A stretch of DNA of 64,000 nucleotides from a virus, in IMG/VR virus record IMGVR_UViG_3300028844_006119, positions 62,001 to 126,000 of that record. One strand, given 5' to 3'. The translations under genes and the position numbers were made by a program. The notes under the pieces were generated by a model. It was not told the DNA's origin. It ran no database searches and saw only the letters and a program-made list of their open reading frames with translations. This document shows positions 18,728 through 49,668 of the stretch, piece by piece; within the stretch, counting starts at the first letter, position 1, and every line of letters begins with the position of its first letter.

Positions 18728-19689
18728 TTTCCAGCGGCTCCCTCTTTTTCTTCAGCGACGAAATACAAAAGTGTGCAGGCATGCCTGCGCCTCAGCAAGC
18801 GCAGCAACCTGAGAAGAAACAGAGCTTTCTCTCCAGGAACAAGATGACTTTGGGAGCCGGCGCTCTTGCCGCAGGGATGATCCTAAAGAACCCCCAGGCA
18901 GCCTCCAAGTACCTGGGCCAAGTGAAGCAGATGGTCACTAACCCTAAGGCAGCCCTTCAGCGTGGCTGGAGATCTGGCTCATCCAACATCACCGGCAAGG
19001 TCCCCGGGGCCTCCGAGTCGGCGTCCAAGAGAGTCAGACTGTACAAGGACGTCTTAAGCTCGGCCGAGCAAGGCAAGCTTCAGTCCGTCAAATCCCTCGA
19101 CACTATTGGCGCGGGGGGAACTTCTGCGAGAGCTTCGGGCTGGGGAAGCGCGGGTAGGTCGTTCAGTAGAGCAGGACAAGAGCTAAAGATGTCCCCCGAT
19201 CTCACTAAGAGAGTGGGAGACATGCAAGCCAAGCTCAAGGCCGGAGAAGAAGTCTCAGAGCAAGCCTTGAAGGGCCTTTATGCTGAGATTCAGGGTGCTG
19301 GAAAGGGCCTTAAGATGAGGAAGGGCCTGTCGTACTATGCCCCTGGAGAGCGTACGATGATGACAGGTCTGGGCACAGGTCTGGGGGCAACGGCGGGCCT
19401 TGAGACCCACGATGCGGAAACAGGACGCAAGAGGGGCGTGGCGGAGCGAGTTGCTCGCGGGACTGTCGGTGCTGCGACTGGCACCGCGATGTCCTCCCTA
19501 TTCATGGGACGAGGCGCAAGGCTCAGCAGCAAGAACTTATTCACAGGAAATAGAGGCTCTCTGCTCAGCCAAAAGGGACTTCTGCCAGTCGCGGCAACGA
19601 CTCCCCTACTGGTGGGTACTGAGGCCGCTGGGGAGGTCGCGGGGAAGGGCGGAGAGCTGGCCGACAGAGCCTTTGGACAGAAATCATGA
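18724..19689 (+). CDS. Putative virion protein with FFSDE N-terminal motif (321 aa)
   Basis: GTG start within GTGA, with AAGGGGCG upstream. The N-terminus carries FFFSDEIQKCAGM, the short motif shared by at least four other small virion-region proteins. The rest is Gly/Ala/Lys rich with a TLGAGALAAGMIL segment near the start and a GLGTGLGATAG segment later, plus basic helices between. It directly precedes the portal gene with an ATGA overlap. It may be an internal or head-vertex protein. Function unknown. Confidence 0.62.
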   Translation: MISSGSLFFFSDEIQKCAGMPAPQQAQQPEKKQSFLSRNKMTLGAGALAAGMILKNPQAASKYLGQVKQMVTNPKAALQRGWRSGSSNITGKVPGASESASKRVRLYKDVLSSAEQGKLQSVKSLDTIGAGGTSARASGWGSAGRSFSRAGQELKMSPDLTKRVGDMQAKLKAGEEVSEQALKGLYAEIQGAGKGLKMRKGLSYYAPGERTMMTGLGTGLGATAGLETHDAETGRKRGVAERVARGTVGAATGTAMSSLFMGRGARLSSKNLFTGNRGSLLSQKGLLPVAATTPLLVGTEAAGEVAGKGGELADRAFGQKS

Positions 19690-21788
19690 ACGTAGTTTCT
19701 AGCGAATCAAACCGATTCAACCCGCGCCCTGTCGACTATGAGGGTGGCCGGGGCTTCGGCATTCGCTACCCGTCCCCCTTCTTCGATGTCGCGCAGCAGT
19801 TTCTTCCGTCCGACGTACACCAGCTCCATCACTGGTGTCGGTACTACTTTCTGACCAACCCGGTTATCAACGCTGCCTGCTCCAAGATGGCGGAGTACCC
19901 CGTCACTCCTCTCGTCTTTGAGACGGAAGACCCCAAGCTGGTAGAGCTGGGCAAGTCCCTAGAAGATCAGCTAAAGCTGCGATCTTTTCAGGTTGAAGTC
20001 GGACTAGACTACTTTGTCTACGGAAATGCGTTCATCTCGCTGTTCTTCCCGTTTGAGAAGTACCTCCTCTGCCCGAAGTGCAAGGAGCGTTACCGCGCCA
20101 GCAAGAACCGCTTCAGATACAAGTGGCGGAGCGGTCGCTTCTATCTGAAGGAGTGCAAGTGCGGGTACCAGGGGTACGCGAAGCAGCAGGATGTCTACAT
20201 CCGCAGCGCGCGCGACATTCGCCTGGTTCGGTGGAATCCAGAGAACGTCAACATCAAGTACAACGAGATCACAGGTAAGGCGAAGTACTACTTCAAGCTG
20301 CCTCGAGCGATCGCCAACGATATCAAGTTGGGCGACGCGGACACGATCGAGACGCTACCCCTTGAGTTCCTAGAGGCTGCCCGTAAGAAGAAGTCCCTCC
20401 TGTTTACTCAGGACAACCTCTATCACTTGAAGCGTCCGACGATTGCCCAGAAGGATCAGGGCTGGGGCACTCCCCTGATCTACCCCTTGCTGAAGGACGC
20501 GTTCTACCTGCAGGTCATGAAGAAGGCGAACGAGGCGGTCCTCATGGAACACATCGTTCCTATGAGGATACTCTTCCCTGGGCAGAGCACGGGCGGGAAT
20601 GAGGGTCCATACGGATCCTATAACCTGAGCAACTGGAAAAAGAAGGTAGACGCTGAGATCAACATGTGGCGTCGGGACCACAACTACATCCCAGTTCTGC
20701 CCGTGAACGTCGGGTTCCAGCAGATCGGCGGACAGGGCCGAGCCCTTCTGATGTACCAGGAGATGCGTCTTCTTTCGGAGCAGATGCTCGCGGGCGCAGG
20801 AATCCCTGTCGAGTTCATCTTCGGCGGGCTTCAGTGGAGCGGGTCCAGCACCTCCCTCCGGGCTCTGGAGAACATGTTCCTGGGGTACAACAAGCAGCGC
20901 CATGAGCTCGTAAACAAGTTCATCGTGGAGAAGGTTTGCTCCTTCATGCGTTGGCCCAAGATCTCGGTGCGCTTTGACAAGTTCAAGATGGCCGACGATC
21001 TGCAGAGAAGCATGTTCTACCTGCAGCTCAACCAGGCGCAGAAGGTCAGTGACCGCAGGCTGCTTGAGGAGATCGGAGAGAACTTCGATCTCGAGAACGA
21101 TCGCATGATGTCCGAGCTAAAGAAGAACCTTCAGACGCAGCGCACCATGCAGGTCGCCGGTGCTGACGTTCAGGGAGAGATCCAGCTTCGCACTTCCCGG
21201 TACCAGGCTAAGTCTCAGTCCCTAATGGCGAAGGCACAGGCCGAAGTCCAGATGGAGATGCAGAAGAAGCAGCTGGAGATGCAGCAGCAGATGCAGCAGC
21301 AGGTGCAGCAGGGTGCAAACCCTCAACAGGTTCAGGCGGCGCAGCAGGCGGCGCAGCAACAACAAGGCGCAGCAGCACAGGCCGCCCCGCAAGGTCAGGC
21401 TCAGCAGGGCGGAGGTCAGGCTCAGCAGACTCCCGGTATGCCGGACGGGGCCACCGCGTACGATGAGAACGCGAAGTCTCCTAACGACACGGGGATGCCC
21501 GCAGCTATGGCGGGTATGACTTCTCAGATCCAGCAGGGAGCTGGAGGAGTAGACCTTCGATACATCGCCCAGAGAGCCGCGGCGTTCTTGAAAACGGTCA
21601 AGAAGGAGCAGGGCCCTGAGGCCATGTACAAGTCTTTGGCCGAGATGCAAACCGGCAATCCGAATCTCTATCAGCTGGTTGTCCAGCTATTGAACGATAC
21701 AGGATCTAAGGAAAATCCCCAGAACGCCCAGGCGGCCCCCAAGCCTAACGGGAATCCGCAAGCGGATATTTCCCGTCAGGTGGGGTAG
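19686..21788 (+). CDS. Portal protein (700 aa)
   Basis: The length, the early Trp/Tyr-rich core (HHWCRYYFLTNPVINAACSKMAEYP) and the downstream block (QMLAGAGIPVEFIFGG...SSTSLRALENMFLGY) match large phage portals, which form the dodecameric head-tail channel. A zinc-ribbon insertion (CPKCKERY...CKCGYQGY) lies around residues 122-165, unusual for portals. The last 230 residues are low complexity, with a long Gln/Met-rich helix and an Ala/Gln-rich linker. It couples by ATGA to the gene before it. The terminase gene is 16 kb away. Confidence 0.85.
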   Translation: MNVVSSESNRFNPRPVDYEGGRGFGIRYPSPFFDVAQQFLPSDVHQLHHWCRYYFLTNPVINAACSKMAEYPVTPLVFETEDPKLVELGKSLEDQLKLRSFQVEVGLDYFVYGNAFISLFFPFEKYLLCPKCKERYRASKNRFRYKWRSGRFYLKECKCGYQGYAKQQDVYIRSARDIRLVRWNPENVNIKYNEITGKAKYYFKLPRAIANDIKLGDADTIETLPLEFLEAARKKKSLLFTQDNLYHLKRPTIAQKDQGWGTPLIYPLLKDAFYLQVMKKANEAVLMEHIVPMRILFPGQSTGGNEGPYGSYNLSNWKKKVDAEINMWRRDHNYIPVLPVNVGFQQIGGQGRALLMYQEMRLLSEQMLAGAGIPVEFIFGGLQWSGSSTSLRALENMFLGYNKQRHELVNKFIVEKVCSFMRWPKISVRFDKFKMADDLQRSMFYLQLNQAQKVSDRRLLEEIGENFDLENDRMMSELKKNLQTQRTMQVAGADVQGEIQLRTSRYQAKSQSLMAKAQAEVQMEMQKKQLEMQQQMQQQVQQGANPQQVQAAQQAAQQQQGAAAQAAPQGQAQQGGGQAQQTPGMPDGATAYDENAKSPNDTGMPAAMAGMTSQIQQGAGGVDLRYIAQRAAAFLKTVKKEQGPEAMYKSLAEMQTGNPNLYQLVVQLLNDTGSKENPQNAQAAPKPNGNPQADISRQVG

Positions 21789-22605: not shown

Positions 22606-25600
22606 ATGGCAAACCTGGCTCCAGGGGACGCATACCGCCTCCTCGAAGAAAGAACCAAAGAAGCCATCAAGAGTCACTTCCCGGTCGAAGGCCGAGAAAA
22701 CAGACTCGAGTTGGTAGATATTTCCACGGATGAGGATGCCTCCTCTGCGTCTGGAAAGCACCACAGCTACAACCACACGTCTCAGACGGACGCAAAGCTC
22801 CATGACAGAACATGGGGTCCCAACATCGTAGGGACGTTCCGGCTCGTAAACATGGAGACGGGTAAGGTCGTAGACCAGGGGAAGCGCACCCTGGGCCAGC
22901 TGCCTAAGATCACCAGTCGGTACAGCTACATCGTTGAGGGGAACGAACGTCAAGTCGACAGCGTCTTCCGCCTTAACCCCGGCGCCTATCACGTAGAGGC
23001 CGACAACGGAGATCTTCTTGCGAAGTGGAACGTCGCCGCAGGATCCAAGGTTGGTTCGTTCAAGATCTCCATTGAGCGTAAGCATCCCAAGAAACTGGGG
23101 GCCATGTACCTGATTGTGAAGAGTGGCACGCAGTCTACTCGCAAGATCCCGGCGTACGGAATCCTCTCCGCCCTGGGAGTATCCGACCCTGCTATGCGCA
23201 AGGCGTGGGGAGAATCCGTATTCGAGGTAAACCGCAGGATCTCCAAGCCCAACGACCTTCTAAACTTTCACGAAGCGGTGGAGAAGCGCCGAGCGGGCAA
23301 GGATAAGTACGAGACGCCTACCCTCTCCGAGGCCCGCAAGTTTGCGAAGGAAGTCTTCGAGGGCGCAGAAGTAAACCCCGATACGATGCTTGCTACGCTG
23401 GGCAAGAAGTTCACCAACATCTCTGGGGACGCTCTCCTGGCCTCCTCGGCCAAGGTGGTGGGAATTAGCAAGGGGACCGCGGAGCCTGACGACAGACAGT
23501 CTCTCTCCAACAAGCGCCTCTTCGGGATGGAAGATTTCATCCACGAGGAGATCTCTAAGGGATCGTCTCGGTTCGAGATGCAGAAGAAGATCCGGAACAA
23601 CCTCGATCGTAAGGGCAAGATCTCAGACATTCTTCCGGCTGCGTCCGTGGGGTATGGGAGGCTGATCACGCGCAAGTTCAAGGCTGCCCAACTTCCGACC
23701 CAGACAAATCCCCTTCAGTTCGTGTCTAACCACACGAAGACGACCATTCTCGGTCAGGCGTTTGGCGGAATTAAGGGAGACAATGTCAACCTTGATCGAG
23801 ACAAGCTGATCAATCCCTCTCACTTGGGGCTGCTTGATCCTCTGCAGACACCAGAGAACACCTCTACCGGCGTCTCGCTGCACATCCCAATCGGGGCCAA
23901 TAAGAAAGGTCAGCAGCTTTACACAAAAGTCCTGAACGTAAAGACCGGGAAGTTCGAGAATAAAAACGCAGCGGAGATGGAGAAGGCCGTCGTTGCATAC
24001 CCCGACCAGGTGAAAATCACCCGCACGAAGACCGGAGCCACAGTCCGGCCCCTGCACCCCGACGTTGTCGTCTATGACTCAGACCGCAGCACGGCCAAGA
24101 GGCCCTGGAAGGACGTCCAGTACGTTCTTCCCAACGCAAAGACACTATTCTCGGTTAGCGCAAACATGATCCCGTTCGTTCAGAACGACAACGGGAACCG
24201 AGCCATGATGGCCGCTAAGCACCAGGAGCAAGCAGTCTCTCTGAAAGACCGAGAAGCCCCGCTGGTTCAGGCTGAATTTGCGGGAGGGGTCTCATTCGAC
24301 CAGATGATCGGCAAGTTGAACTCTACTACCGCTAGTGTGGCCGGAACTGTGTCGAGAATCACCAAGGATTCTGTTTACATAAAGGGCGCGGCAGGAAAAG
24401 CGGTGTCCCACCCGATCTACAACCACCATCCCCTCAACGGCACGAAGCACATGATGCATTCGACTCCGGTTGTGAAGGTGGGAGACAAGGTAAAGGTTGG
24501 ACAGCTCATCGCCGACTCTAACTTCACCAAGGACGGCACCCTATCCTTGGGTACGAATCTTCGCGTCGGGTATCTGCCGTACAAGGGCTACAACTTTGAG
24601 GACGGGACCGTCATCTCGGAGACTGCCGCCAAGAAGTTGGTGTCCACCCATCTCCACATCGAAGAAGCGGAGATGTTCGCCAACGTAGTCGTAAACAGGA
24701 AGCTGTGGAGAAACTTCGCTGGGGCCAACAAGGCCACGGCAGAAGTGATGAGCAAGCTGGACGAGGATGGCGTCATCAAGGAGGGAGCCAAGGTAGTTCC
24801 CGACGATGTGTTGATCACTCGGCTGGTCAAGGCGGAGATGACTCGAGAGAACCAGGACGTCAAGAGGTCCCTGAAGAAGGCTATCCGGGACTACAAAGAC
24901 GCCGCAGTGGTCTGGAAGCATGAGTACGGCGGCACTGTCGTTCGAGTCGTCAAGACTGCGAAGAAGATCCAGGTTCATATCCGCACTGAGCAGACAATGG
25001 AGCCCGGAGATAAGCTGTCGGGGCGTCACGGTAACAAGGGAATCATCACCAAGATCCTGCCTGACGATATGATGCCCAAGGATAAGAGCGGGAAGCCCGT
25101 CCATGTCCTGATGAGCCCCGCAGGCGTCCCATCCCGTATGAATGTCGGGCAGGTCCTGGAGACGGCTGCAAGTAAGATTGCCCGCAAGACGGGAAAGTCG
25201 TACAAGATCGAGAACTTCGATGCCTCCGTTGATTACTCCCAGAAGATTAAGGATGAGCTCAAGAAGCACAATCTTTCCGATACGGAGGAGCTTTTCGATC
25301 CCGAAACCGGAGAGTCTCTCGGGCAGATCTTTACGGGTGAGCAGTACATGCTCAAGCTGGACCACCAGGCCGAAAAGAAGGTGTCTGCCCGATCTGGAGG
25401 ATCTGGGTATGCCTATCGGCCCACCGGCGAGGCAATCTCCGGTTCGGGCATCGGGAAGGGCGGGCAACGAATTGGTGGCCTAGACACCTACGCTCTGCTG
25501 GCACACGGAGCCAAGAGAAATCTGATGGAGATGCAGACCTACAAGTCTGACTCCGAGCAGGCCCGGGATGTCTGGATTCGGGTGATGCAGGGACAGCGTC

Positions 25601-28600
25601 CGCCTCCCCCCAAGGTCCCTACCTCGATGGAGCACTTCAAGAAGTACCTACGGGCTACGGGGGTCTATGCCGAGGAGACTGGCGGTGTGTACTCCCTGTC
25701 TCCCATGACGGATGCTCAGACCCTAGGGCAGAGTAAAGGCGCGCTCGTAGCGGCGGATAAGACGCTGGTGGCAAAGGGGATGCTCACCAAGGAAGAAAAG
25801 GGCGGCCTGTTTGATAGGGGCAAGACCGGAGGCATGGAGGGCAAATTCTGGTCCCACATCGACATGAAGACCCGGATGCCCAACCCAATGTTTGAGACCG
25901 CAATCCAGTCTCTGCTCGGCCTAAAAAAGGCGGAGTTTGAAAAGCTGGTCTCCGAAAACGGAGCCGTGGGGAAGAAGTCCGGGTTCCAGATCATTGAGGA
26001 GCGTCTGCGCGCCATCAAGGTTCCCTCCGAGCTAAAGAAGGCGGAAGAGGAGCTGAAGACCGCTAAGAAGGCGGACCTCAACAAGAAGTACAAGAAGGTC
26101 CGGTATCTTCGCGCGCTGAAGGAGCTCAAGACCTCTCCGGTAGACGCCTATACGAACCAGCATCTCCCAGTGCTGCCTCCCATCTTGAGGCCGGTAAAGA
26201 TTGGATACGACGGCACACAGATGATTGATGCCGCGAATCAGTACTACGCCATGATCGGCCAGATGACCAAGCAGGTAGAGCAGGGGAAGAAGGAGGGGCT
26301 GCCGAAGGCCGACATCTTCAAGAGAGAAGCGCAGCTATACGACCTGGTCCGTGCGTTGCGCCTGAATGGCATGACTCAGGAAGGCAGGGAGCTTCCCAGT
26401 CTGATGGACAAGATGACGGGCTCGAAGCCCAAACACTCATTCTTTCAGCAGGGTGTTCTGTCGAAGCGGCAGGACTTGTCGGGCCGGACGGTCGTTACCC
26501 CAGAGCCCGCATTGAAGATGGACCAGGTGGGCATCCCTGTCGATATGGCGATGGAGACGTACAAGCCGTTCGTCATCAGAGAGCTGTGGCGTCGTATGGG
26601 AATCGCCAAGAGCCCTGGCGAAGCAAGACGCATGATCAAGAAGAACCACCCCTCCGCCAAGAAAGCGTTGGAGAGGGTGATTACTCAGCGTCCAGTAATC
26701 ATGAAGAGAGACCCTGCGCTTCATATGTTTTCTACTATGGCCTTCAAGCCAGTTCTTGTGCCGGGGAAGTCGATCAAGATCCACCCACTTGTGTGCGGCG
26801 GCTTCAACGCGGACTTCGATGGCGACACCATGGCCATGTATGTGCCCGTGACTGAGGAAGCTGCGGAGGAGGCCCTGGAGAAGATGCTCCCGTCTAAGAA
26901 CCTGTTTTCCCCCACACACGGGGGCCTCATGTTGACCCCCAGCCAGGATGCCGTTCTCGGCATCTACCAGGCTACAAAGTGGGGCAAGAAGGTTCCTGGA
27001 ATCCTTACGGAGGAGCAGGCGCTTCAGCAGCTGAAGAACGGAAAGTTGAAGTCTGACAACGTCATCACGGTCAAGGGCCACAAGAAGCCTACGACTGCGG
27101 GAAGACTGCGGATCAACAAGACCCTGCCCGGCAGCGTAAAGAATGATCCCGAGCTTCTATACGATCCCAAATTCCGCATGGCCAAGGGCGCTATGAAGGG
27201 ATTCGCAACTCGAGTAGCCCAATCCGATCCGGATGAGTTCTCCGGCATGATCGACGGATGGAAGGAGTTGGGGTTCACGCTGTCATATAAGAACGGTAGT
27301 TCGTTCAGCCTGAATGATTTTCACGACGGTAAGACCATCCGAGACAACGTCCTGAAGAAGTACAAGAAGGAAGAGAATGTGATTCGCAAGTCTGGTATTT
27401 CTCGTAAAAAGAAGGACCAGAAGATTATCGCCCTGTACCAAAAAGCAGGCGAGGAACTCAAGGTTATCGGGCAGGCCCACTACAAGGCTAAAAAAGACAA
27501 CCGTATGTGGGAGTGGGCTGAAAGCGGTGCGCGAAGCAACTGGGGCCAGTTCGGTCAGTTGGTCATGGGGCCCATGCTTGTGCAGAACCCCTCCAAGGAG
27601 TTTGTGCCTGTACCGCTCACTACCTCGTTTGGGGAGGGGCTCCCGATCTCTCAGTACTGGGCAGCGCTGCATGGCGCCCGAAAGGGAACCCTGGATCGCG
27701 CAGCAGGAACTAGAGACCCCGGAGCGCTCACCAAGGAGTTGATCAACACAGTCATTGCGTACTCTGTGACCGACAAGGACTGTGGTACTTCCAAGGGCAC
27801 TCTGATGTCCGTCATGGCGAAGGACATCGAGGGCAGGTACCTGGCGCGCGAGGTGCCCCTGAAGAGCGGGGACAAACTGACCCGTGGAACCCTGGTCAGC
27901 TCGGCATTGTTGACCAGGATGAAGAACTCCGGCCCCCAGAAGGTCCTGGTGCGCTCCCCTCTTCACTGCCAGCAGGCAACGGGCATTTGCGCCACTTGCT
28001 ATGGGCTTAACGAGAGAGGAACTCTCTACAAAAAGGGAACCAACGTTGGCATCATTGCCGGCCATGCCCTCGGAGAGCCAGTCACTCAGATGCAGATGCG
28101 GACGTTCCACACGGGCGGCGCCGGAACCGACGGGCTGACGGATTACTTCCAGCAGGCAAAGGACCTCTTCAAGGTGCCCGAGAAGCTACGAGGTGCCGCT
28201 ACGTTGGCGGAGGTCACCGGCAGGGTAGATAAAATCGAGACGGATGCCCTTGGCGGTAAGAAGGTCACGATTGGCGGAAAGCTGCACGTTGTCCCCCACT
28301 CGACCCCACTCCTCCCGAAGATTAGGGTCGGGGCGGACGTGAAGAAGACAGACGCGCTCTCTGTTGGTCGGAAAAATCCGCACGACATCCTTCGGATCTC
28401 CAACAACATCCATGCTGTCCGCAATCACCTCACGACAGAGCTAGACTCTCTGTACGTAGAGACTACGGGGAACGAGAGGCGGAGGAACATCGAGACGGTG
28501 ATCCGTGCGATGACCGATGTTGCGCAGGTGACCGAAAGCTCTGAGCACGAGAACCTGCTCAATGGGCAGATGATGTCTCTTTCCCGGATTGAGAACAGGA

Positions 28601-28944
28601 ACAAAGAGCTGAAGAAGTTGGGACTCCCCACCATCCAGCACAAGCCTCTGCTGAAGCCTATGGACAAAGTCCCGCTTTCCGGTAAAGAAGACTGGATGGC
28701 GCGACTAAACTTCCAGAGGCTTAAGGACACCCTTATCGAGGGCGGGGCACAGAACTGGAAGTCAGATATCCAGGGTCACCCCATCCCAGGCCTGGCGCAT
28801 GGTGCGGCGTTTGGACTGCAAGCCCCAAAGACCGCAGCCATAAGCTCCCCTTTCCCCAAGCCCCCCAAACCTGTTAAACTTCCGGCACCTGTGCCTGCCG
28901 CCCCGCAGGGCATCTTCGGGTCCTTCTTTGGAGCAAAGTCATGA
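22606..28944 (+). CDS. Single-chain fused beta-beta' RNA polymerase (2112 aa)
   Basis: One reading frame encodes both large subunits of bacterial-type RNA polymerase. The beta half shows LLDPLQTPENTSTGVSL, IPFVQNDNGNRAMMAAKHQ (rifampicin region), GYNFEDGTVISE, GDKLSGRHGNKG (residue 801) and SRMNVGQVLE. Beta ends near residue 1020. The beta' half shows HIDMKTRMPN (about 1085), LPVLPPILRP, GFNADFDGDTMAMYVP with the three catalytic Asp at 1403, 1405 and 1407, a bridge-helix block HGARKGTLDRA, the zinc site HCQQATGICATCYG and the trigger-loop region MRTFHTGGA. The beta' N-terminal zinc ribbon is absent. No alpha, omega or sigma gene is seen. The C-terminal 40 residues include PKTAA and a Pro/Lys-rich stretch. 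It lies among virion genes and couples (ATGA) to the next, suggesting packaging. Confidence 0.97.
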   Translation: MANLAPGDAYRLLEERTKEAIKSHFPVEGRENRLELVDISTDEDASSASGKHHSYNHTSQTDAKLHDRTWGPNIVGTFRLVNMETGKVVDQGKRTLGQLPKITSRYSYIVEGNERQVDSVFRLNPGAYHVEADNGDLLAKWNVAAGSKVGSFKISIERKHPKKLGAMYLIVKSGTQSTRKIPAYGILSALGVSDPAMRKAWGESVFEVNRRISKPNDLLNFHEAVEKRRAGKDKYETPTLSEARKFAKEVFEGAEVNPDTMLATLGKKFTNISGDALLASSAKVVGISKGTAEPDDRQSLSNKRLFGMEDFIHEEISKGSSRFEMQKKIRNNLDRKGKISDILPAASVGYGRLITRKFKAAQLPTQTNPLQFVSNHTKTTILGQAFGGIKGDNVNLDRDKLINPSHLGLLDPLQTPENTSTGVSLHIPIGANKKGQQLYTKVLNVKTGKFENKNAAEMEKAVVAYPDQVKITRTKTGATVRPLHPDVVVYDSDRSTAKRPWKDVQYVLPNAKTLFSVSANMIPFVQNDNGNRAMMAAKHQEQAVSLKDREAPLVQAEFAGGVSFDQMIGKLNSTTASVAGTVSRITKDSVYIKGAAGKAVSHPIYNHHPLNGTKHMMHSTPVVKVGDKVKVGQLIADSNFTKDGTLSLGTNLRVGYLPYKGYNFEDGTVISETAAKKLVSTHLHIEEAEMFANVVVNRKLWRNFAGANKATAEVMSKLDEDGVIKEGAKVVPDDVLITRLVKAEMTRENQDVKRSLKKAIRDYKDAAVVWKHEYGGTVVRVVKTAKKIQVHIRTEQTMEPGDKLSGRHGNKGIITKILPDDMMPKDKSGKPVHVLMSPAGVPSRMNVGQVLETAASKIARKTGKSYKIENFDASVDYSQKIKDELKKHNLSDTEELFDPETGESLGQIFTGEQYMLKLDHQAEKKVSARSGGSGYAYRPTGEAISGSGIGKGGQRIGGLDTYALLAHGAKRNLMEMQTYKSDSEQARDVWIRVMQGQRPPPPKVPTSMEHFKKYLRATGVYAEETGGVYSLSPMTDAQTLGQSKGALVAADKTLVAKGMLTKEEKGGLFDRGKTGGMEGKFWSHIDMKTRMPNPMFETAIQSLLGLKKAEFEKLVSENGAVGKKSGFQIIEERLRAIKVPSELKKAEEELKTAKKADLNKKYKKVRYLRALKELKTSPVDAYTNQHLPVLPPILRPVKIGYDGTQMIDAANQYYAMIGQMTKQVEQGKKEGLPKADIFKREAQLYDLVRALRLNGMTQEGRELPSLMDKMTGSKPKHSFFQQGVLSKRQDLSGRTVVTPEPALKMDQVGIPVDMAMETYKPFVIRELWRRMGIAKSPGEARRMIKKNHPSAKKALERVITQRPVIMKRDPALHMFSTMAFKPVLVPGKSIKIHPLVCGGFNADFDGDTMAMYVPVTEEAAEEALEKMLPSKNLFSPTHGGLMLTPSQDAVLGIYQATKWGKKVPGILTEEQALQQLKNGKLKSDNVITVKGHKKPTTAGRLRINKTLPGSVKNDPELLYDPKFRMAKGAMKGFATRVAQSDPDEFSGMIDGWKELGFTLSYKNGSSFSLNDFHDGKTIRDNVLKKYKKEENVIRKSGISRKKKDQKIIALYQKAGEELKVIGQAHYKAKKDNRMWEWAESGARSNWGQFGQLVMGPMLVQNPSKEFVPVPLTTSFGEGLPISQYWAALHGARKGTLDRAAGTRDPGALTKELINTVIAYSVTDKDCGTSKGTLMSVMAKDIEGRYLAREVPLKSGDKLTRGTLVSSALLTRMKNSGPQKVLVRSPLHCQQATGICATCYGLNERGTLYKKGTNVGIIAGHALGEPVTQMQMRTFHTGGAGTDGLTDYFQQAKDLFKVPEKLRGAATLAEVTGRVDKIETDALGGKKVTIGGKLHVVPHSTPLLPKIRVGADVKKTDALSVGRKNPHDILRISNNIHAVRNHLTTELDSLYVETTGNERRRNIETVIRAMTDVAQVTESSEHENLLNGQMMSLSRIENRNKELKKLGLPTIQHKPLLKPMDKVPLSGKEDWMARLNFQRLKDTLIEGGAQNWKSDIQGHPIPGLAHGAAFGLQAPKTAAISSPFPKPPKPVKLPAPVPAAPQGIFGSFFGAKS

Positions 28945-29363
28945 ACAAGATCGCCGCATACGAAATCGCACTCGAGAGAATCGAACTTGAGAAGCGGGCT
29001 GACTCCCTGGTGGAGGCCTACGGCACCAGTGAGGGCTACATGCCGGGTGCCTACCTTCAGGCGTTTGATCAGATCGAGAAGGAAGCCGGAATCCAGGCTA
29101 TCGCAAATATCGGGAGCCGCCTCTCAACAGCGGCGCGAGGCACCATTAAAGGGATGATGGGGAGCGGCGGGGCAGTAGTCCGAAAGGGCGGGAAGATGCA
29201 GCTTAGCAGGGGAGCCGGACTTGGGGACACGGCTAAGTACTACGGAGCTCGAGGCGTGCAGCGCGCGGGAAGATTCGCCATGCAGAATCCCGGCGCGACT
29301 GCAGCTGTTGGCGGGGTCGGAGGTGTCGGAGCTGCCGGCCTCGGGTACAAGGCTCTGAAGTAG
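28941..29363 (+). CDS. Putative virion protein (140 aa), MNKIA N-terminus
   Basis: The ATG overlaps the RNA polymerase stop (ATGA). The N-terminus MNKIAAYE is nearly repeated in the unrelated small protein at 60345. A charged helical first half (ERIELEKRADSLVEAY, QIEKEAG) is followed by a basic middle and a Gly/Ala-rich hydrophobic end (GATAAVGGVGGVGAAGLGY). This layout recurs in virion genes here. Being coupled to the polymerase, it could help package or anchor it. That is inference. Confidence 0.62.
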   Translation: MNKIAAYEIALERIELEKRADSLVEAYGTSEGYMPGAYLQAFDQIEKEAGIQAIANIGSRLSTAARGTIKGMMGSGGAVVRKGGKMQLSRGAGLGDTAKYYGARGVQRAGRFAMQNPGATAAVGGVGGVGAAGLGYKALK

Positions 29364-29364
29364 A

Positions 29365-30564
29365 ATGCCCGCACCCGTCTCCCCAGCAGCGCCTTCTCCG
29401 GCATTGATCCTCCAAGGGCGCATCTCTGAAGTAGATGCGCCCCGGTGGCTATGCAAGGTGCGGGTTGACGGGAGAGACGATGATGTGACCACGACCATCC
29501 CATCTGTGTACTCTCATCCGATGAACGGGGAGGGGATCCACTTCTTGCCGGAGGTTGGAGCGTTTTGCTACGTCTGCTTTAGCTCCGACAAGAAGACCAT
29601 CCCCTTCCTGCTTTCTGCTGGAGCCGCAACGGTGCCGAAGGATCGGTCTTCATCCGAAGGCCTTCCCGGGTCGATGGATATGTTCCGTCCCCTCCTGACC
29701 GCAGGGGACATTGCCCTTCTCACTAGAGACGGCAACGGCCTTACCCTGCGCAGAGGAGGAGTGACGGAACTCAAGGGCACGTCCCTGGCTAAGATCGTGT
29801 TCAACCCGACGATGAACCAGGTGTTCACCATCGCTGAGAACTACCGGGTCCAGACGTTTGGAGGATCTACTGAGTGGAAGAACCTCCGACGCGAGGAAAA
29901 CCCAGATGGCCAGGTCAGGACGCGGCTCTCTACTGTGGTCAAGGAGTACGCCACCTCCAAGGGCTACAGTGTCCGTCTCCAGATGGGTGCCACTGAGGGA
30001 GCGCCTGTTGCGCTTCAGGGCGACGATTCGGCAGAGAAAGCGCCGGACAAGGTGGTGGAAGAGTCGGAAGCTGTGACGCTCTCCGGTACAGGAGATACAT
30101 ACACGGTCACGGTGCCCAAGTCTGTTCCGCTGCTGGACAGCACTAGGGTTGTGGACTTCAGGATCTACGAGGACGAGACGGTCGCTGAAGATGCGCTAGA
30201 GGTAGTGATGAATCTCGGCATGGACCGAGAAGGAGACATCCAACTCGAGACCGATGGCGCTATGAAGATCGACGTGCCCAAGAAGTGGGTGGAGATTGTC
30301 GTTGGAGGCAGCACTCCGTTTATCAATACGGAAGCGGCAGGGGCGCAGAAGGTACTGGTAACTACTGGGACACAGGGCAACACTGAGCCGGTGATCAAGG
30401 GATTCGCATTCCTGTCAGATCTTGCGGCCTCTCTGACCGAGATTAAGACGGCCCTGAACGGGCTCGGCATTCCGACTGTCTCGACGGATGCCCTATTGGC
30501 AAACATCCTTACTTCTGTGGCGGACGGAGCTCCATATCTGTCTACTACTCTGGAGAGTGAATAA
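29365..30564 (+). CDS. Baseplate assembly/spike protein, gpV/gp5 OB-fold-like (399 aa)
   Basis: The first 90 residues (LILQGRISEVDAPRWLCKVRV...IPSVYSHPMNGEGIHFLPEVGAFCYVCF) match the OB-fold domain of gpV/gp5 spike and baseplate hub proteins. Repeating beta-strand sequence follows (GDIALLTRDGNGLTLRRGGV, MKIDVPKKWVEIVVGG), suggesting a trimeric beta-helical shaft, and a helical C-terminus. Such proteins form the membrane-puncturing needle of contractile tails. The ATG follows the previous stop by one base. Confidence 0.7.
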   Translation: MPAPVSPAAPSPALILQGRISEVDAPRWLCKVRVDGRDDDVTTTIPSVYSHPMNGEGIHFLPEVGAFCYVCFSSDKKTIPFLLSAGAATVPKDRSSSEGLPGSMDMFRPLLTAGDIALLTRDGNGLTLRRGGVTELKGTSLAKIVFNPTMNQVFTIAENYRVQTFGGSTEWKNLRREENPDGQVRTRLSTVVKEYATSKGYSVRLQMGATEGAPVALQGDDSAEKAPDKVVEESEAVTLSGTGDTYTVTVPKSVPLLDSTRVVDFRIYEDETVAEDALEVVMNLGMDREGDIQLETDGAMKIDVPKKWVEIVVGGSTPFINTEAAGAQKVLVTTGTQGNTEPVIKGFAFLSDLAASLTEIKTALNGLGIPTVSTDALLANILTSVADGAPYLSTTLESE

Positions 30565-37981: not shown

Positions 37982-38010
37982 TAGTGCCTCCTTTTTTGTT
38001 AGCAGAGGAC

Positions 38011-38017
38011 TTATGCC
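38011..38017 (-). promoter_or_regulatory. GGCATAA element in the gap before terminase
   Basis: On the minus strand GTAAGGCATAAGTCC precedes the 187-residue gene by 29 bases and lies in the divergent gap shared with the terminase gene. It differs from the GTCATAA form by one base. Confidence 0.33.
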
Positions 38018-38046
38018 TTACAATGGTCCAAACTTTAGGAGGCCAG

Positions 38047-39771
38047 ATGGATAACTCTGAGCCCTGGGATTATGCTCCTCCCTCAGTCGACCCGGACTTG
38101 GAGCAGGCATACGAAGAGGAAACCGCGGACATCCGCCTCCCCGTGTTGCCGTCCCAGTTCATTGAGACTTCCGTCTTGATGCCAGATCCGCACACGCGGA
38201 GCCTCACCAACTTTTCCTTTGGCGAGAGAAAGTATCTTCGGGAGATCTACGACATCCGGGCTCCGAGAGTCCTTCTTATGTGCGGCAGGCAGGTTGAGAA
38301 AAGTACTACGCTGGGCAACAAGGCCCTTGCCTACTCGTGCCTCATTCCGCACTTCAAGATTCTCTATGTCTCTCCGTCTAGTACGCAGACCAAGGAGTTC
38401 TCCAAGACGAGACTGAAGGAGCCCCTCGAGACGTGCCCGGACCTGAAGACCTGGTTCCCGTCTCATTTGACGGACAACGTCTTCGAGAAGAAGGCCATCA
38501 ACCGGAGTCAGATCACTCTCCGGTATGCGTTCCTGAACGCCGATAGATGCCGTGGCCTCTCGGCAGACCTCATCTGCATGGACGAGTTTCAGGATCTGCT
38601 CCTGGACAACATTCCGGTCATCGAAGAGGCCGCCTCGCACAGCCCCTTCAAGTGGTTCATCTACAGTGGGACGCCTAAGTCCCTGGACAACCCCATCCAG
38701 CACTACTGGGATACCTACTCCACGCAGAACGAGTGGGTGGTTCCGTGTGATAGGCACGGCACCCCAAACAACCCAGGGTCGTGGCACTGGAACATCCTTG
38801 GGGAAAAGAACATCGGCATCAATGGGCTGATCTGCGACAAGTGCGGAAACCTCATCAAGCCCGACCACCCCATGTCTCAATGGGTGAAAACCGGAAATCC
38901 CAACCCCAAGTACGACACGTTTGAGGGGTACCGCATCCCCCAGCTGATGGTGCCCTGGATTGAGTGGTCGAACATCCTCACCAAGTACAACCAGTACCCC
39001 AGAGGTAAGTTCTACAATGAGGTTTTAGGCGCAAGCTTCGACTCTGGGCAGCGCCCACTGACTCGTCAGGATGTCTACGACAACTGCGACCCAGAGATGA
39101 GCATGTCTGTGGAGGGCGTTCAGAAGAACAAGACCGGAGCCACGCAGCTCTACGCCGGGATCGACTGGGGACAGGACAGCACAAACTCCTACACCATCGT
39201 CACCATCGGCGGATACATCGGCGGCAAGTTCAAGATTATCTTCGCGCACAGGTTCAGCGGCGCGGAATCTGAGCCCAAAGTCCAGATCGAGAAGATCAAG
39301 AAGCTCCTGGTCAGCTTCAATGTCGTTCGGGTAGGAGTTGACTATGGTGGAGGTTATTGGCCGAATGACGAGCTGCTGAGAAGCTTTGGCTCTCAGAGGA
39401 TTGTCAGGTACCAGTACTCCACCCCAAAGACGATGATGAAGTACGACTCGAACAAGGGCCGGTTCTTGATCCACCGGTCTGAAGTGATGAGTGCTGTGTT
39501 CAATGCGATCAAGCGTCGGTCGGTCTTTCGGTTCCCCAAGTGGCCTGAGTGGGGAACTCCTTTCGGGTCCGACATGCTGGCCATCTTCAGCGAGTACAAT
39601 GAGCGAAGTCGGAACACCGAGTACAAGAAGTCCCCTAATACGACGGATGATACGTTTCACGCGCTGGTGCTGTGCTTCTTGGCGTCGATGATAGACAACC
39701 CTCGACCCGACATCCTGGTTCCAAACCAGGCTATTGACCGCAGGCTAAACGATCTCGAAGATTACAGCTAA
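38047..39771 (+). CDS. Terminase large subunit (574 aa)
   Basis: ATG at 38047 is fixed by AGGAGG five bases upstream, and longer frames lack a site. The ATPase domain shows a variant Walker A (LLMCGRQVEKSTTLGN), Walker B (LICMDEFQD) and an IYSGTP coupling motif. The nuclease domain shows GIDWGQDSTNS, VGVDYGGG and TTDDTFHAL, giving the RNase H-like metal site. A zinc-binding pair (CDRHG...CDKCGN) lies between them. It pumps DNA into the prohead through the portal. The gene stands alone in plus orientation between two minus clusters. Confidence 0.94.
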   Translation: MDNSEPWDYAPPSVDPDLEQAYEEETADIRLPVLPSQFIETSVLMPDPHTRSLTNFSFGERKYLREIYDIRAPRVLLMCGRQVEKSTTLGNKALAYSCLIPHFKILYVSPSSTQTKEFSKTRLKEPLETCPDLKTWFPSHLTDNVFEKKAINRSQITLRYAFLNADRCRGLSADLICMDEFQDLLLDNIPVIEEAASHSPFKWFIYSGTPKSLDNPIQHYWDTYSTQNEWVVPCDRHGTPNNPGSWHWNILGEKNIGINGLICDKCGNLIKPDHPMSQWVKTGNPNPKYDTFEGYRIPQLMVPWIEWSNILTKYNQYPRGKFYNEVLGASFDSGQRPLTRQDVYDNCDPEMSMSVEGVQKNKTGATQLYAGIDWGQDSTNSYTIVTIGGYIGGKFKIIFAHRFSGAESEPKVQIEKIKKLLVSFNVVRVGVDYGGGYWPNDELLRSFGSQRIVRYQYSTPKTMMKYDSNKGRFLIHRSEVMSAVFNAIKRRSVFRFPKWPEWGTPFGSDMLAIFSEYNERSRNTEYKKSPNTTDDTFHALVLCFLASMIDNPRPDILVPNQAIDRRLNDLEDYS

Positions 39772-48531: not shown

Positions 48532-49668
48532 ATGGATTATTCCGCTGAAATGGTGAATTCGGGCTTCATTGAGCGCCTCGAGACTGAGGGTTCCACGAAG
48601 ACCGCCGCCGCCTCTCTCAACTACATCAAGGATCGCCTGCGCGAGTCCAGCTTTGCCGACATGATCGTTCCGAACGAGCGTGTTGTGCGTGGCGACTTGC
48701 AGCGCAGCACCCAGCACGACACCCTCGTGAAGATCGTCGACATCGAGCCGGGTTCCCGCGCGATGGCCGTCAACTTCCGTGGTCAGCCTACCGCTGAGTA
48801 CGTGTCTGGTAAGCGCTACGCAATCGGCTTCTTCACCATCTCGAGCCTCAAGTTCGAAATCGTGGAGCAGGAGCTGATGGCATACGAGATGCCCGTCACC
48901 CGCATCATCGAGGAGAACAGCCTCAAGGACATGGTCGAGGTCAAGGATCGCGAGTTCCTGAACCACGTCGAGTCCTGCATCGATGCAATGCAGAGCGAGG
49001 GTGGTATCACCACCTTCAACACCTCGACTTGGACAGCTGGTTCCCAGTTCTCGAAGATCAAGGGCTCTCTGGCTCTGCAGCAGACCACCGACAACTTCAA
49101 CGTCCAGGCAATCCAGCGGACTGACATTGTGGAGCTCAAGAAGCTTCTCAAGCGTCAGGTGCTTGATAGCTCCGGTAACGTGGTTCGTCAGGGTCGTCTT
49201 CGTCCCGCGCTGATGCTCATGACTGAGTCCGACGCTGACGACTTCGATCAGTGGACTCACGAGGACTACGGTGATCGTCTCCAGAGCGAAACCGCTCTCG
49301 ACGGCTACACCTACAACAAGGTCCTCGGTCTGCGCATCGTCCGTACCATCAAGAACGACATCCTGCGTGAGGGCAACGTTTACGTGTTCACCGCACCGGA
49401 GTTCTTCGGCCGGAACTACACGCTGAACGATGTCAAGTTCTACATCGATAAGATTGCGAACCGCATCTTCTGGCAGGCATGGATGGACGTGGGCATGGGC
49501 TTCGGCAACATCGCCTCGGTCGTCAAGCTTGAGCTCTACTCCGGTAGTGTCAGTGGCACGCCGGATTCCGGCTTTGCTGCAGCGATGCCGACTGACGAAG
49601 AGAACCTGGGTGGCCAGAACAACAAGGCCGCTGATGGTCTGACCTACCCGAGCCTCAACATCTTCTAG
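48532..49668 (+). CDS. Major capsid protein, HK97-like (378 aa)
   Basis: The length, the strong AGGAG site, the following terminator and regular codon use (mostly C-ending) fit the highly expressed capsid gene. The N-terminus has about 25 residues ending in the STKTAAAS motif, which could be a removable propeptide. The body shows E-loop-like and long-helix segments (IEQELMAYEMPVTRIIEE-like region), a P-domain-like middle and a C-terminal FYIDKIANRIFWQAWMDVGM block near the end. Subunits should form the icosahedral shell. Confidence 0.82.
   Translation: MDYSAEMVNSGFIERLETEGSTKTAAASLNYIKDRLRESSFADMIVPNERVVRGDLQRSTQHDTLVKIVDIEPGSRAMAVNFRGQPTAEYVSGKRYAIGFFTISSLKFEIVEQELMAYEMPVTRIIEENSLKDMVEVKDREFLNHVESCIDAMQSEGGITTFNTSTWTAGSQFSKIKGSLALQQTTDNFNVQAIQRTDIVELKKLLKRQVLDSSGNVVRQGRLRPALMLMTESDADDFDQWTHEDYGDRLQSETALDGYTYNKVLGLRIVRTIKNDILREGNVYVFTAPEFFGRNYTLNDVKFYIDKIANRIFWQAWMDVGMGFGNIASVVKLELYSGSVSGTPDSGFAAAMPTDEENLGGQNNKAADGLTYPSLNIF

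What the first reader, a model, noticed from the sequence alone, without database searches (positions are those of the whole stretch)
22606..28944. A phage gene for a complete single-chain beta-beta' RNA polymerase with near-canonical catalytic motifs
Beta and beta' are fused in one 2112-residue reading frame. The active-site NADFDGD, the rifampicin-region block, the bridge-helix block, the second zinc site and the trigger-loop region are all close to cellular bacterial enzymes. Known phage multi-subunit polymerases (phiKZ group) are split and divergent, and known single-chain phage enzymes (YonO, crAss-like, P23-45) are very divergent. A conserved full fusion is therefore unusual and points to a separate capture of rpoB-rpoC.
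Basis: partly seen in the sequence, partly recalled or inferred. Interest (0 to 1): 0.95.

Follow-up and report, generated by a model that had tools for sequence, protein, structure and literature searches.

The report
Single-chain bacterial-type phage RNA polymerase
This phage carries the two big halves of a bacteria-like RNA-making enzyme joined in one very long protein, together with its own sigma (promoter-finding) factor; the same joined enzyme occurs in many uncultured phages, and a laboratory phage of the same lineage carries its version inside the virus particle.

Summary
Window 22606-28944 is one intact gene of 2112 codons encoding beta and beta-prime in one chain. It is not an assembly error: intact fused ORFs occur in 66 clusters (95% identity) of IMG/VR contigs.

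Catalytic aspartates, active-site lysines, trigger-loop histidine and the second zinc site are conserved. Identity to bacteria is only 25-31% overall, against at least 50% among sampled bacteria. The N-terminal zinc domain is lost; usual sigma-contact and several rifampicin-site residues are changed.

The enzyme is not phiKZ-, crAss- or YonO-like, but it is not solitary. It forms one clade with the split polymerases of Salmonella phage Arash and Vibrio phages D69/D148/D181. Those keep the beta/beta-prime junction and are broken elsewhere, so the fusion is probably ancestral to the clade. The clade probably overlaps 'mReC' (Weinheimer & Aylward 2020), whose main text reports no fusion for it; not verified.

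The genome also encodes a sigma-70-type factor, found in 32 of 40 related records, and no detectable alpha. Best explanation: a virion-packaged single-chain core plus phage sigma that transcribes phage genes on entry. Packaging is inferred from Arash, where polymerase and sigma were detected in virion preparations.

The parts
22606..28944 (+). single-chain beta-beta' RNA polymerase, 2112 aa
   Evidence: homologous intact ORFs
22606..25662 (+). beta moiety, residues 1-1019 (approximate boundary)
   Evidence: alignment with rpoB; AF2 model of residues 1-1180 (mean pLDDT 79), best PDB matches bacterial beta chains, TM about 0.61-0.64 by query length
24598..24603 (+). beta active-site E665 D666 (E. 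coli E813 D814)
   Evidence: D in 37/37 and E in 36/37 fused members
25012..25038 (+). beta active-site lysines, KLSGRHGNK, residues 803-811 (E. coli K1065, K1073)
   Evidence: 37/37
25657..25704 (+). beta/beta' junction, residues 1018-1033: predicted beta hairpin joining the beta C-terminus to the beta' N-terminus with essentially no linker
   Evidence: alignments; DSSP strands 1021-1025 and 1028-1032 in one model, equivalent strands in the other
25687..28836 (+). beta' moiety, residues about 1028-2077
   Evidence: alignment; AF2 model of residues 930-2112, mean pLDDT 81, pTM 0.74; bacterial beta' best in PDB, TM up to 0.79 by query length
25819..25854 (+). site where the N-terminal zinc-binding domain (E. 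coli C70/C72/C85/C88) is missing
   Evidence: cysteines absent in 37/37 fused and 11/11 split members, present in 24/24 bacterial rows
26230..26367 (+). clamp coiled coil, residues 1209-1254: kept as a helical hairpin, but bacterial sigma-contact residues R275 and E295 replaced
26806..26826 (+). NADFDGD, catalytic aspartates 1403/1405/1407
   Evidence: 37/37
27646..27753 (+). bridge helix region (GARKG at 1690-1694)
   Evidence: aligned with E. coli 769-804; R780 37/37
27781..27999 (+). second zinc site, C1726/C1788/C1795/C1798
   Evidence: 37/37
28078..28179 (+). trigger loop (Q1828, M1831, R1832, F1834, H1835); no SI3 insertion
   Evidence: Q and H 37/37
28819..28941 (+). proline-rich, probably disordered C-terminal tail with a short aromatic motif, found in the window's near relatives; many other family members end in tyrosine
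   Evidence: pLDDT below 50
28941..29363 (+). 140-aa ORF starting in a 4-base ATGA overlap with the polymerase stop
19686..21788 (+). portal protein, next large + strand gene upstream of the polymerase, as in Arash and D69
   Evidence: BLASTP to Arash gp204 30%, E 3e-94; synteny
29365..30564 (+). possible baseplate protein (weak, just below the Pfam cut-off)
   Evidence: Phage_base_V E 3e-4
37984..39771 (+). terminase large subunit
   Evidence: phrog_675 4.7e-60; Arash gp1 29%, E 1e-50
48532..49668 (+). major capsid protein (probable)
   Evidence: phrog_2522 E 5e-5

Best explanation
A catalytically complete, bacterial-type DNA-dependent RNA polymerase whose beta and beta-prime subunits are one polypeptide. 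It works with the phage's own sigma-70-type factor (G000:32958-33785, outside the window) and probably without alpha or omega. Core and sigma are made from the structural gene block, packed into the particle, enter the cell with the DNA and start phage transcription without the host polymerase. SHOWN by sequence: the fusion, the conserved active site, the loss of the N-terminal zinc domain, the sigma gene and its conservation, no detectable alpha in this (possibly incomplete) record, placement among structural genes. SHOWN FOR A RELATIVE: Arash polymerase parts and sigma in virion preparations (PMC10585845). INFERRED: packaging in this phage, use of the phage sigma, independence from host polymerase, timing.
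For: Active-site residues kept in 36-37 of 37 members. Fold is bacterial beta-prime and beta. Own sigma: Sigma70_r3 E 2e-8, phrog_351 E 1.5e-10, family profile to SigA in the PDB E 2.5e-17; found in 32 of 40 related records including Arash and D69. Portal, terminase and a large structural gene near sigma are also shared with Arash. In Arash virion preparations gp206 (beta plus the first part of beta-prime) is the most detected protein with 3516 spectra, gp216 has 1210 and sigma gp10 has 467. The polymerase follows the portal gene and overlaps the next gene by 4 bases. No alpha domain in the record, with 13 of 14 controls ringing. Both the beta-prime sigma-contact residues and sigma region 2 have drifted from the bacterial form, as expected if they co-evolved.
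Against: No biochemistry or virion proteome for this phage. The record is linear and may be a fragment, so alpha, omega or a second polymerase could lie outside it. Arash's authors note that the enzymes could be carry-over of abundant proteins from infection. Sigma-core contact was not modelled. No promoter motif was found.
Confidence: 0.65

Rival explanations
1. A non-virion enzyme: made after infection from host-transcribed early genes and used with the phage sigma for middle or late genes only.
For: Some phage-encoded polymerases act this way (for example P23-45 gp64, PMC10770324). Only one polymerase is seen in this record. Arash spectra could reflect carry-over, as its authors say.
Against: The gene lies in the structural block next to the portal. 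Arash core and sigma are prominent in the virion preparation.
Confidence: 0.24
2. A hybrid enzyme: the fused core is assembled on host alpha and programmed by host sigma.
For: The core is bacterial-type and no alpha was found in the record.
Against: Residues that contact bacterial sigma (R275, E295, flap tip L901/F906) are not conserved. A phage sigma is conserved.
Confidence: 0.06
3. Recent capture of a host rpoB-rpoC operon, or a chimaeric assembly of two genes.
For: Near-canonical active-site motifs; natural rpoB-rpoC fusions exist in some bacteria (own knowledge: Helicobacter, Wolbachia).
Against: 25-31% identity to all bacteria sampled, while those share at least 50% with each other. One strongly supported phage clade. 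66 separate clusters with the same intact ORF.
Confidence: 0.02
4. On evolution: the lineage started with separate beta and beta-prime genes and fused more than once, the split Arash forms being the older state.
For: The tree does not reject the split group as sister to all fused members (AU p 0.456).
Against: All 25 split relatives checked still carry the beta/beta-prime junction inside one ORF and are broken about 100 residues or more downstream, at constant places near P0001 residues 1124-1160 and 1490, which points to breakage of a fused ancestor.
Confidence: 0.05

Closest known systems
Split RNA polymerases of Salmonella phage Arash and Vibrio phages D69, D148, D181
   Same: Same clade (support 1.000 and 100), same portal-polymerase order, homologous sigma and terminase, same beta/beta-prime junction, N-terminal zinc domain lost.
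   Different: About 30% identity; chain broken after the catalytic domain (two parts), in some environmental relatives also early in beta-prime (three parts); catalytic motif AADYDGD instead of NADFDGD.
mReC (multimeric RNAP-encoding Caudovirales; Weinheimer & Aylward 2020, PMC7481178)
   Same: Caudovirales contigs, partly from IMG/VR, with COG0085/COG0086-type polymerase in a clade apart from bacteria.
   Different: Described as encoding beta and beta-prime subunits; the main text speaks of fusion only for crAssphage. Its capsid/terminase Pfam families (PF07068, PF03237) were not those found here (PF05876 terminase; capsid without Pfam match). Identity of the two lineages could not be checked by contig.
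phiKZ/AR9-type jumbo phage RNA polymerases (virion and non-virion)
   Same: Phage-encoded two-barrel enzyme; one of the two types is packaged in virions.
   Different: Those are split into at least four or five polypeptides, are far more divergent, and no sigma factor is found in those phages (PMC7598289, PMC7824862); here one chain plus sigma.
Single-chain crAss-like gp66, Thermus phage P23-45 gp64/gp96, YonO
   Same: Both catalytic barrels in one polypeptide (crAss-like, P23-45).
   Different: Many of those show no significant similarity beyond a small region around DxDxD (PMC10770324); this one keeps the bacterial beta and beta-prime domain order and the second zinc site.
Cellular fused rpoB-rpoC (Helicobacter, Wolbachia; own knowledge)
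   Same: beta joined to beta-prime in the same order.
   Different: To my knowledge cellular fusions belong to ordinary bacterial enzymes with alpha and omega; not tested here.

Membership tests
Bacterial-type two-barrel RNA polymerase core | beta and beta-prime domain order with catalytic NADFDGD, beta lysines, bridge helix and trigger loop | tested here: met
Bacterial-type two-barrel RNA polymerase core | second beta-prime zinc site | tested here: met
   four cysteines in 37/37
Bacterial-type two-barrel RNA polymerase core | N-terminal zinc-binding domain of beta-prime | tested here: not met
   cysteines absent 37/37
Bacterial-type two-barrel RNA polymerase core | alpha subunit gene in the same genome | tested here: inconclusive
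   no RNA_pol_L match, controls ring in 13 of 14, but the record may be a fragment
Arash/D69 polymerase lineage | one phylogenetic clade | tested here: met
   support 1.000 and 100
Arash/D69 polymerase lineage | shared gene neighbourhood (portal-polymerase) and homologous sigma | tested here: met
Arash/D69 polymerase lineage | polymerase and sigma in the virion | not testable with these tools
   reported for Arash only
mReC | polymerase clade distinct from cellular homologues | tested here: met
   no archaeal or eukaryotic rows
mReC | MCP of PF07068 and TerL of PF03237 where detected | tested here: not met
   TerL matches PF05876, MCP no Pfam match; in the paper only a minority of mReC had a detected MCP or TerL
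mReC | polymerase groups with the published mReC sequences | not testable with these tools
   supplementary data not open; the named mReC1-3 contigs were not among the hits
phiKZ/AR9 jumbo polymerases | beta and beta-prime split in four or more chains, no sigma | tested here: not met
   one chain, sigma present; AR9/PBS1 match only about 10% of the query
crAss/P23-45/YonO single-subunit clade | little or no similarity to bacterial beta/beta-prime outside the catalytic region | tested here: not met
   alignment with bacterial rpoB-rpoC over nearly the whole length
sigma-70 factor (companion gene) | regions 2-4 by profile | tested here: met
   family profile aligns over SigA 169-359, E 2.5e-17; Pfam region 2 alone matches in only 2 of 16 members

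The most novel reading that the evidence does not exclude
A two-polypeptide holoenzyme: a one-chain bacterial-type core plus a dedicated phage sigma, working without alpha or omega and carried in the virion, from a lineage that separated from cellular polymerases before the bacterial phyla diverged, with the fusion at its root and later re-breakage at new sites in the Arash branch.
Probability: 0.3. Interest if true: 0.9.

Novelty: new variant of a known kind. Interest (0 to 1): 0.72.

Why it matters
If true it would be one of the simplest bacterial-type transcription machines found in nature: one core chain and one sigma. One could then ask directly what alpha, omega and the N-terminal zinc domain are needed for. 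It links a large uncultured phage lineage to isolates that can be grown (Arash, Vibrio D69), and shows that an enzyme annotated there as a 'beta subunit' is really beta plus part of beta-prime. The lineage sits apart from all sampled bacteria, so it also bears on when phages took RNA polymerase from cells.

Tried and rejected
Assembly error or frameshift: rejected by independent contigs. Recent host capture: rejected by the uniform 25-31% identity to bacteria. phiKZ/YonO membership: not supported. Proof of direction (fusion first) from the tree alone: failed, AU p 0.456; replaced by the junction evidence. Sigma search with Pfam region 2 in the genome: negative; the sigma was found from the ORF list and region 3 instead. 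Cellular genomes for a host or provirus: none found with the window protein; the second scan's kept hits were bacterial rpoBC. Promoter motif by k-mer enrichment upstream of 32 genes: nothing clear. T7-type polymerase search: uninformative, no control rang. Contig-level match to the published mReC examples: not reached. Several protein hits in the phage collection (Salmonella, Enterococcus, Staphylococcus, Listeria records) look like bacterial rpoBC sequence and were not counted as phage polymerases. Papers: no description of this fusion found in the open library; subscription papers and preprints outside it were not searched.
Full report
Observation. Window 22606-28944 (+) is one uninterrupted reading frame of 2112 aa in a 142,186-base IMG/VR virus record. 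Pfam finds Rpb2 domains 6 and 7 followed by Rpb1 domains 2, 3 and 5. The gene has a plausible ribosome site, and its stop overlaps the next start (ATGA). The surroundings are those of a tailed phage: portal, terminase, probable capsid, family A DNA polymerase, DnaB-like helicase.

Not an artefact. A scan of IMG/VR with the protein alone gave 15 loci with the same full-length fused frame at 63-69% identity. Profile scans gave 197 and at least 544 relatives, of which at most 80 are returned per scan. Of the loci returned, 124 carry an intact fused frame, in 66 clusters at 95% identity. The longest frame per cluster is usually 2016-2244 aa; in five clusters it is 2408-2986 aa and in one 3259 aa, with long inserts, one of which has a LAGLIDADG domain. 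So the fusion is the common state of a large phage lineage, not a rarity.

Anatomy. Against 24 bacterial rows, 37 fused members all keep the catalytic aspartates, beta D814, K1065, K1073, R1106, beta-prime K334, R352, R425, R780, the four Zn2 cysteines and trigger-loop Q929/H936 (E. coli numbers); E813 is kept in 36 of 37. In all of them the cysteines of the beta-prime N-terminal zinc domain are gone. In the window protein the trigger-loop insertion SI3 is also absent. The bacterial sigma-contact residues R275 and E295 and the flap tip are not conserved, although the clamp coiled coil is still predicted as a helical hairpin. Rifampicin-site F514, D516, H526, S531 and I572 are replaced, which predicts resistance (inference). 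The join is nearly linker-free: the C-terminal strand of beta and the N-terminal strand of beta-prime form one predicted hairpin, residues 1018-1033. Both half models match bacterial beta-prime and beta chains best in the PDB.

Relationships. Identity of fused members to bacteria is 27% at the median (25-31%), whereas the sampled bacteria share at least 50% with each other, and no phylum is clearly nearer to the window protein. FastTree and IQ-TREE (LG+C20) place all fused members together with the split polymerases of Arash and Vibrio phages in one clade, support 1.000 and 100. Whether the split forms are nested inside the fused ones is not resolved (AU p 0.456). The gene structure is more telling. 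In 25 split relatives the 'beta' frame always runs on past the junction by about 100 residues or more, and the breaks fall at constant new places, near P0001 1124-1160 and near 1490. The simplest account is a fused ancestor that broke once after the catalytic domain (Arash, D69) and, in part of the group, once more early in beta-prime. Arash gp206, deposited as 'beta subunit', is therefore beta plus the first part of beta-prime.

Sigma and virion evidence. Outside the window, at G000:32958-33785, lies a 276-aa sigma-70-type factor. Its family profile matches SigA over regions 2-4 in the PDB at E 2.5e-17. It is found in 32 of 40 related records, including Arash gp10 and D69; the eight without it are records of 43-134 kb that may be fragments. 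A large structural gene, a small ORF and sigma follow one another in Arash too, and the large genes are weakly similar. In Arash virion preparations gp206 gives the highest spectral count of all proteins (3516), gp216 gives 1210 and the sigma 467 (PMC10585845). No alpha domain was found.

Mechanism. I commit to a virion-packaged single-chain core with its own sigma that starts transcription on entry (0.65). Catalytic competence and the presence of sigma are supported by sequence. Packaging is supported for Arash only. Sigma use, alpha independence and timing are inferred. The main rival is a non-virion enzyme for later genes (0.24).

Prior knowledge. Weinheimer & Aylward (PMC7481178) described mReC, Caudovirales contigs with bacterial-like beta and beta-prime in a clade of their own. 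Their main text mentions fusion only for crAssphage. Their search (both COG HMMs, at least 800 aa, NADxDGD) would also accept a fused protein, so mReC probably overlaps this lineage, but I could not check their contigs. phiKZ-type enzymes are split and sigma-free, and many single-chain phage enzymes share little more than the catalytic region with cellular ones (PMC7598289, PMC7824862, PMC10770324). I therefore rate this a new variant of a known kind. The points I did not find described are the covalent fusion as the likely ancestral state, the conserved sigma partner, and the junction retained in 'split' isolates.

Limits. No archaeal or eukaryotic outgroup, a possibly incomplete genome record, an open-access-only literature search and no experiments.

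Noticed in passing
window 18748, 46159, 60616, 60903 (+); L129:7249-7851 (-); similar at window 42384: Several small proteins of the structural region begin with a shared peptide like HFFSDEVEKLA; others carry KTA/KEA/KIA motifs near the N-terminus. It may be a virion-targeting or processing signal.
   Followed up: partly
L060:7001-14224, L083, L111, L117-L119, L121: Fused polymerase frames of 2408-3259 aa: probable inteins or similar inserts in the polymerase; a LAGLIDADG_3 domain was found in L060, no insert domain recognised in L117.
   Followed up: partly
OQ632216.1 gp206 (L002:7962-12539); D69 L003:7962-12545: Arash gp206, deposited as beta subunit, is really beta plus the first part of beta-prime including the catalytic motif (AADYDGD); the Vibrio D69 equivalent is annotated hypothetical.
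   Followed up: yes
window 28819-28941 and C-termini of relatives: Many fused polymerases end in a tyrosine (GPY, HVY); the window and its near relatives instead have a proline-rich tail with an aromatic end such as SFF/SFL. Purpose unknown.
   Followed up: no
L324, L328: Two relatives in which the catalytic motif lies in a shorter frame (1030 and 1276 aa); possibly further split sites, inserts or sequencing errors.
   Followed up: no
OZ196140.1 and OZ196545.1 (Vibrio phages D181, D148): A homing endonuclease gene lies inside the polymerase region in two of the three Vibrio phages.
   Followed up: no
L129:2466-3464 (G000 about 127965-128963): ParB-like protein encoded in this phage (Pfam ParB_N 1e-8).
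   Followed up: no
phages collection: OR846602, OR844998, OR849902, OR847295, AFYI01000006, AGRM01000005: Records in the phage collection that appear to hold bacterial rpoBC sequence.
   Followed up: partly
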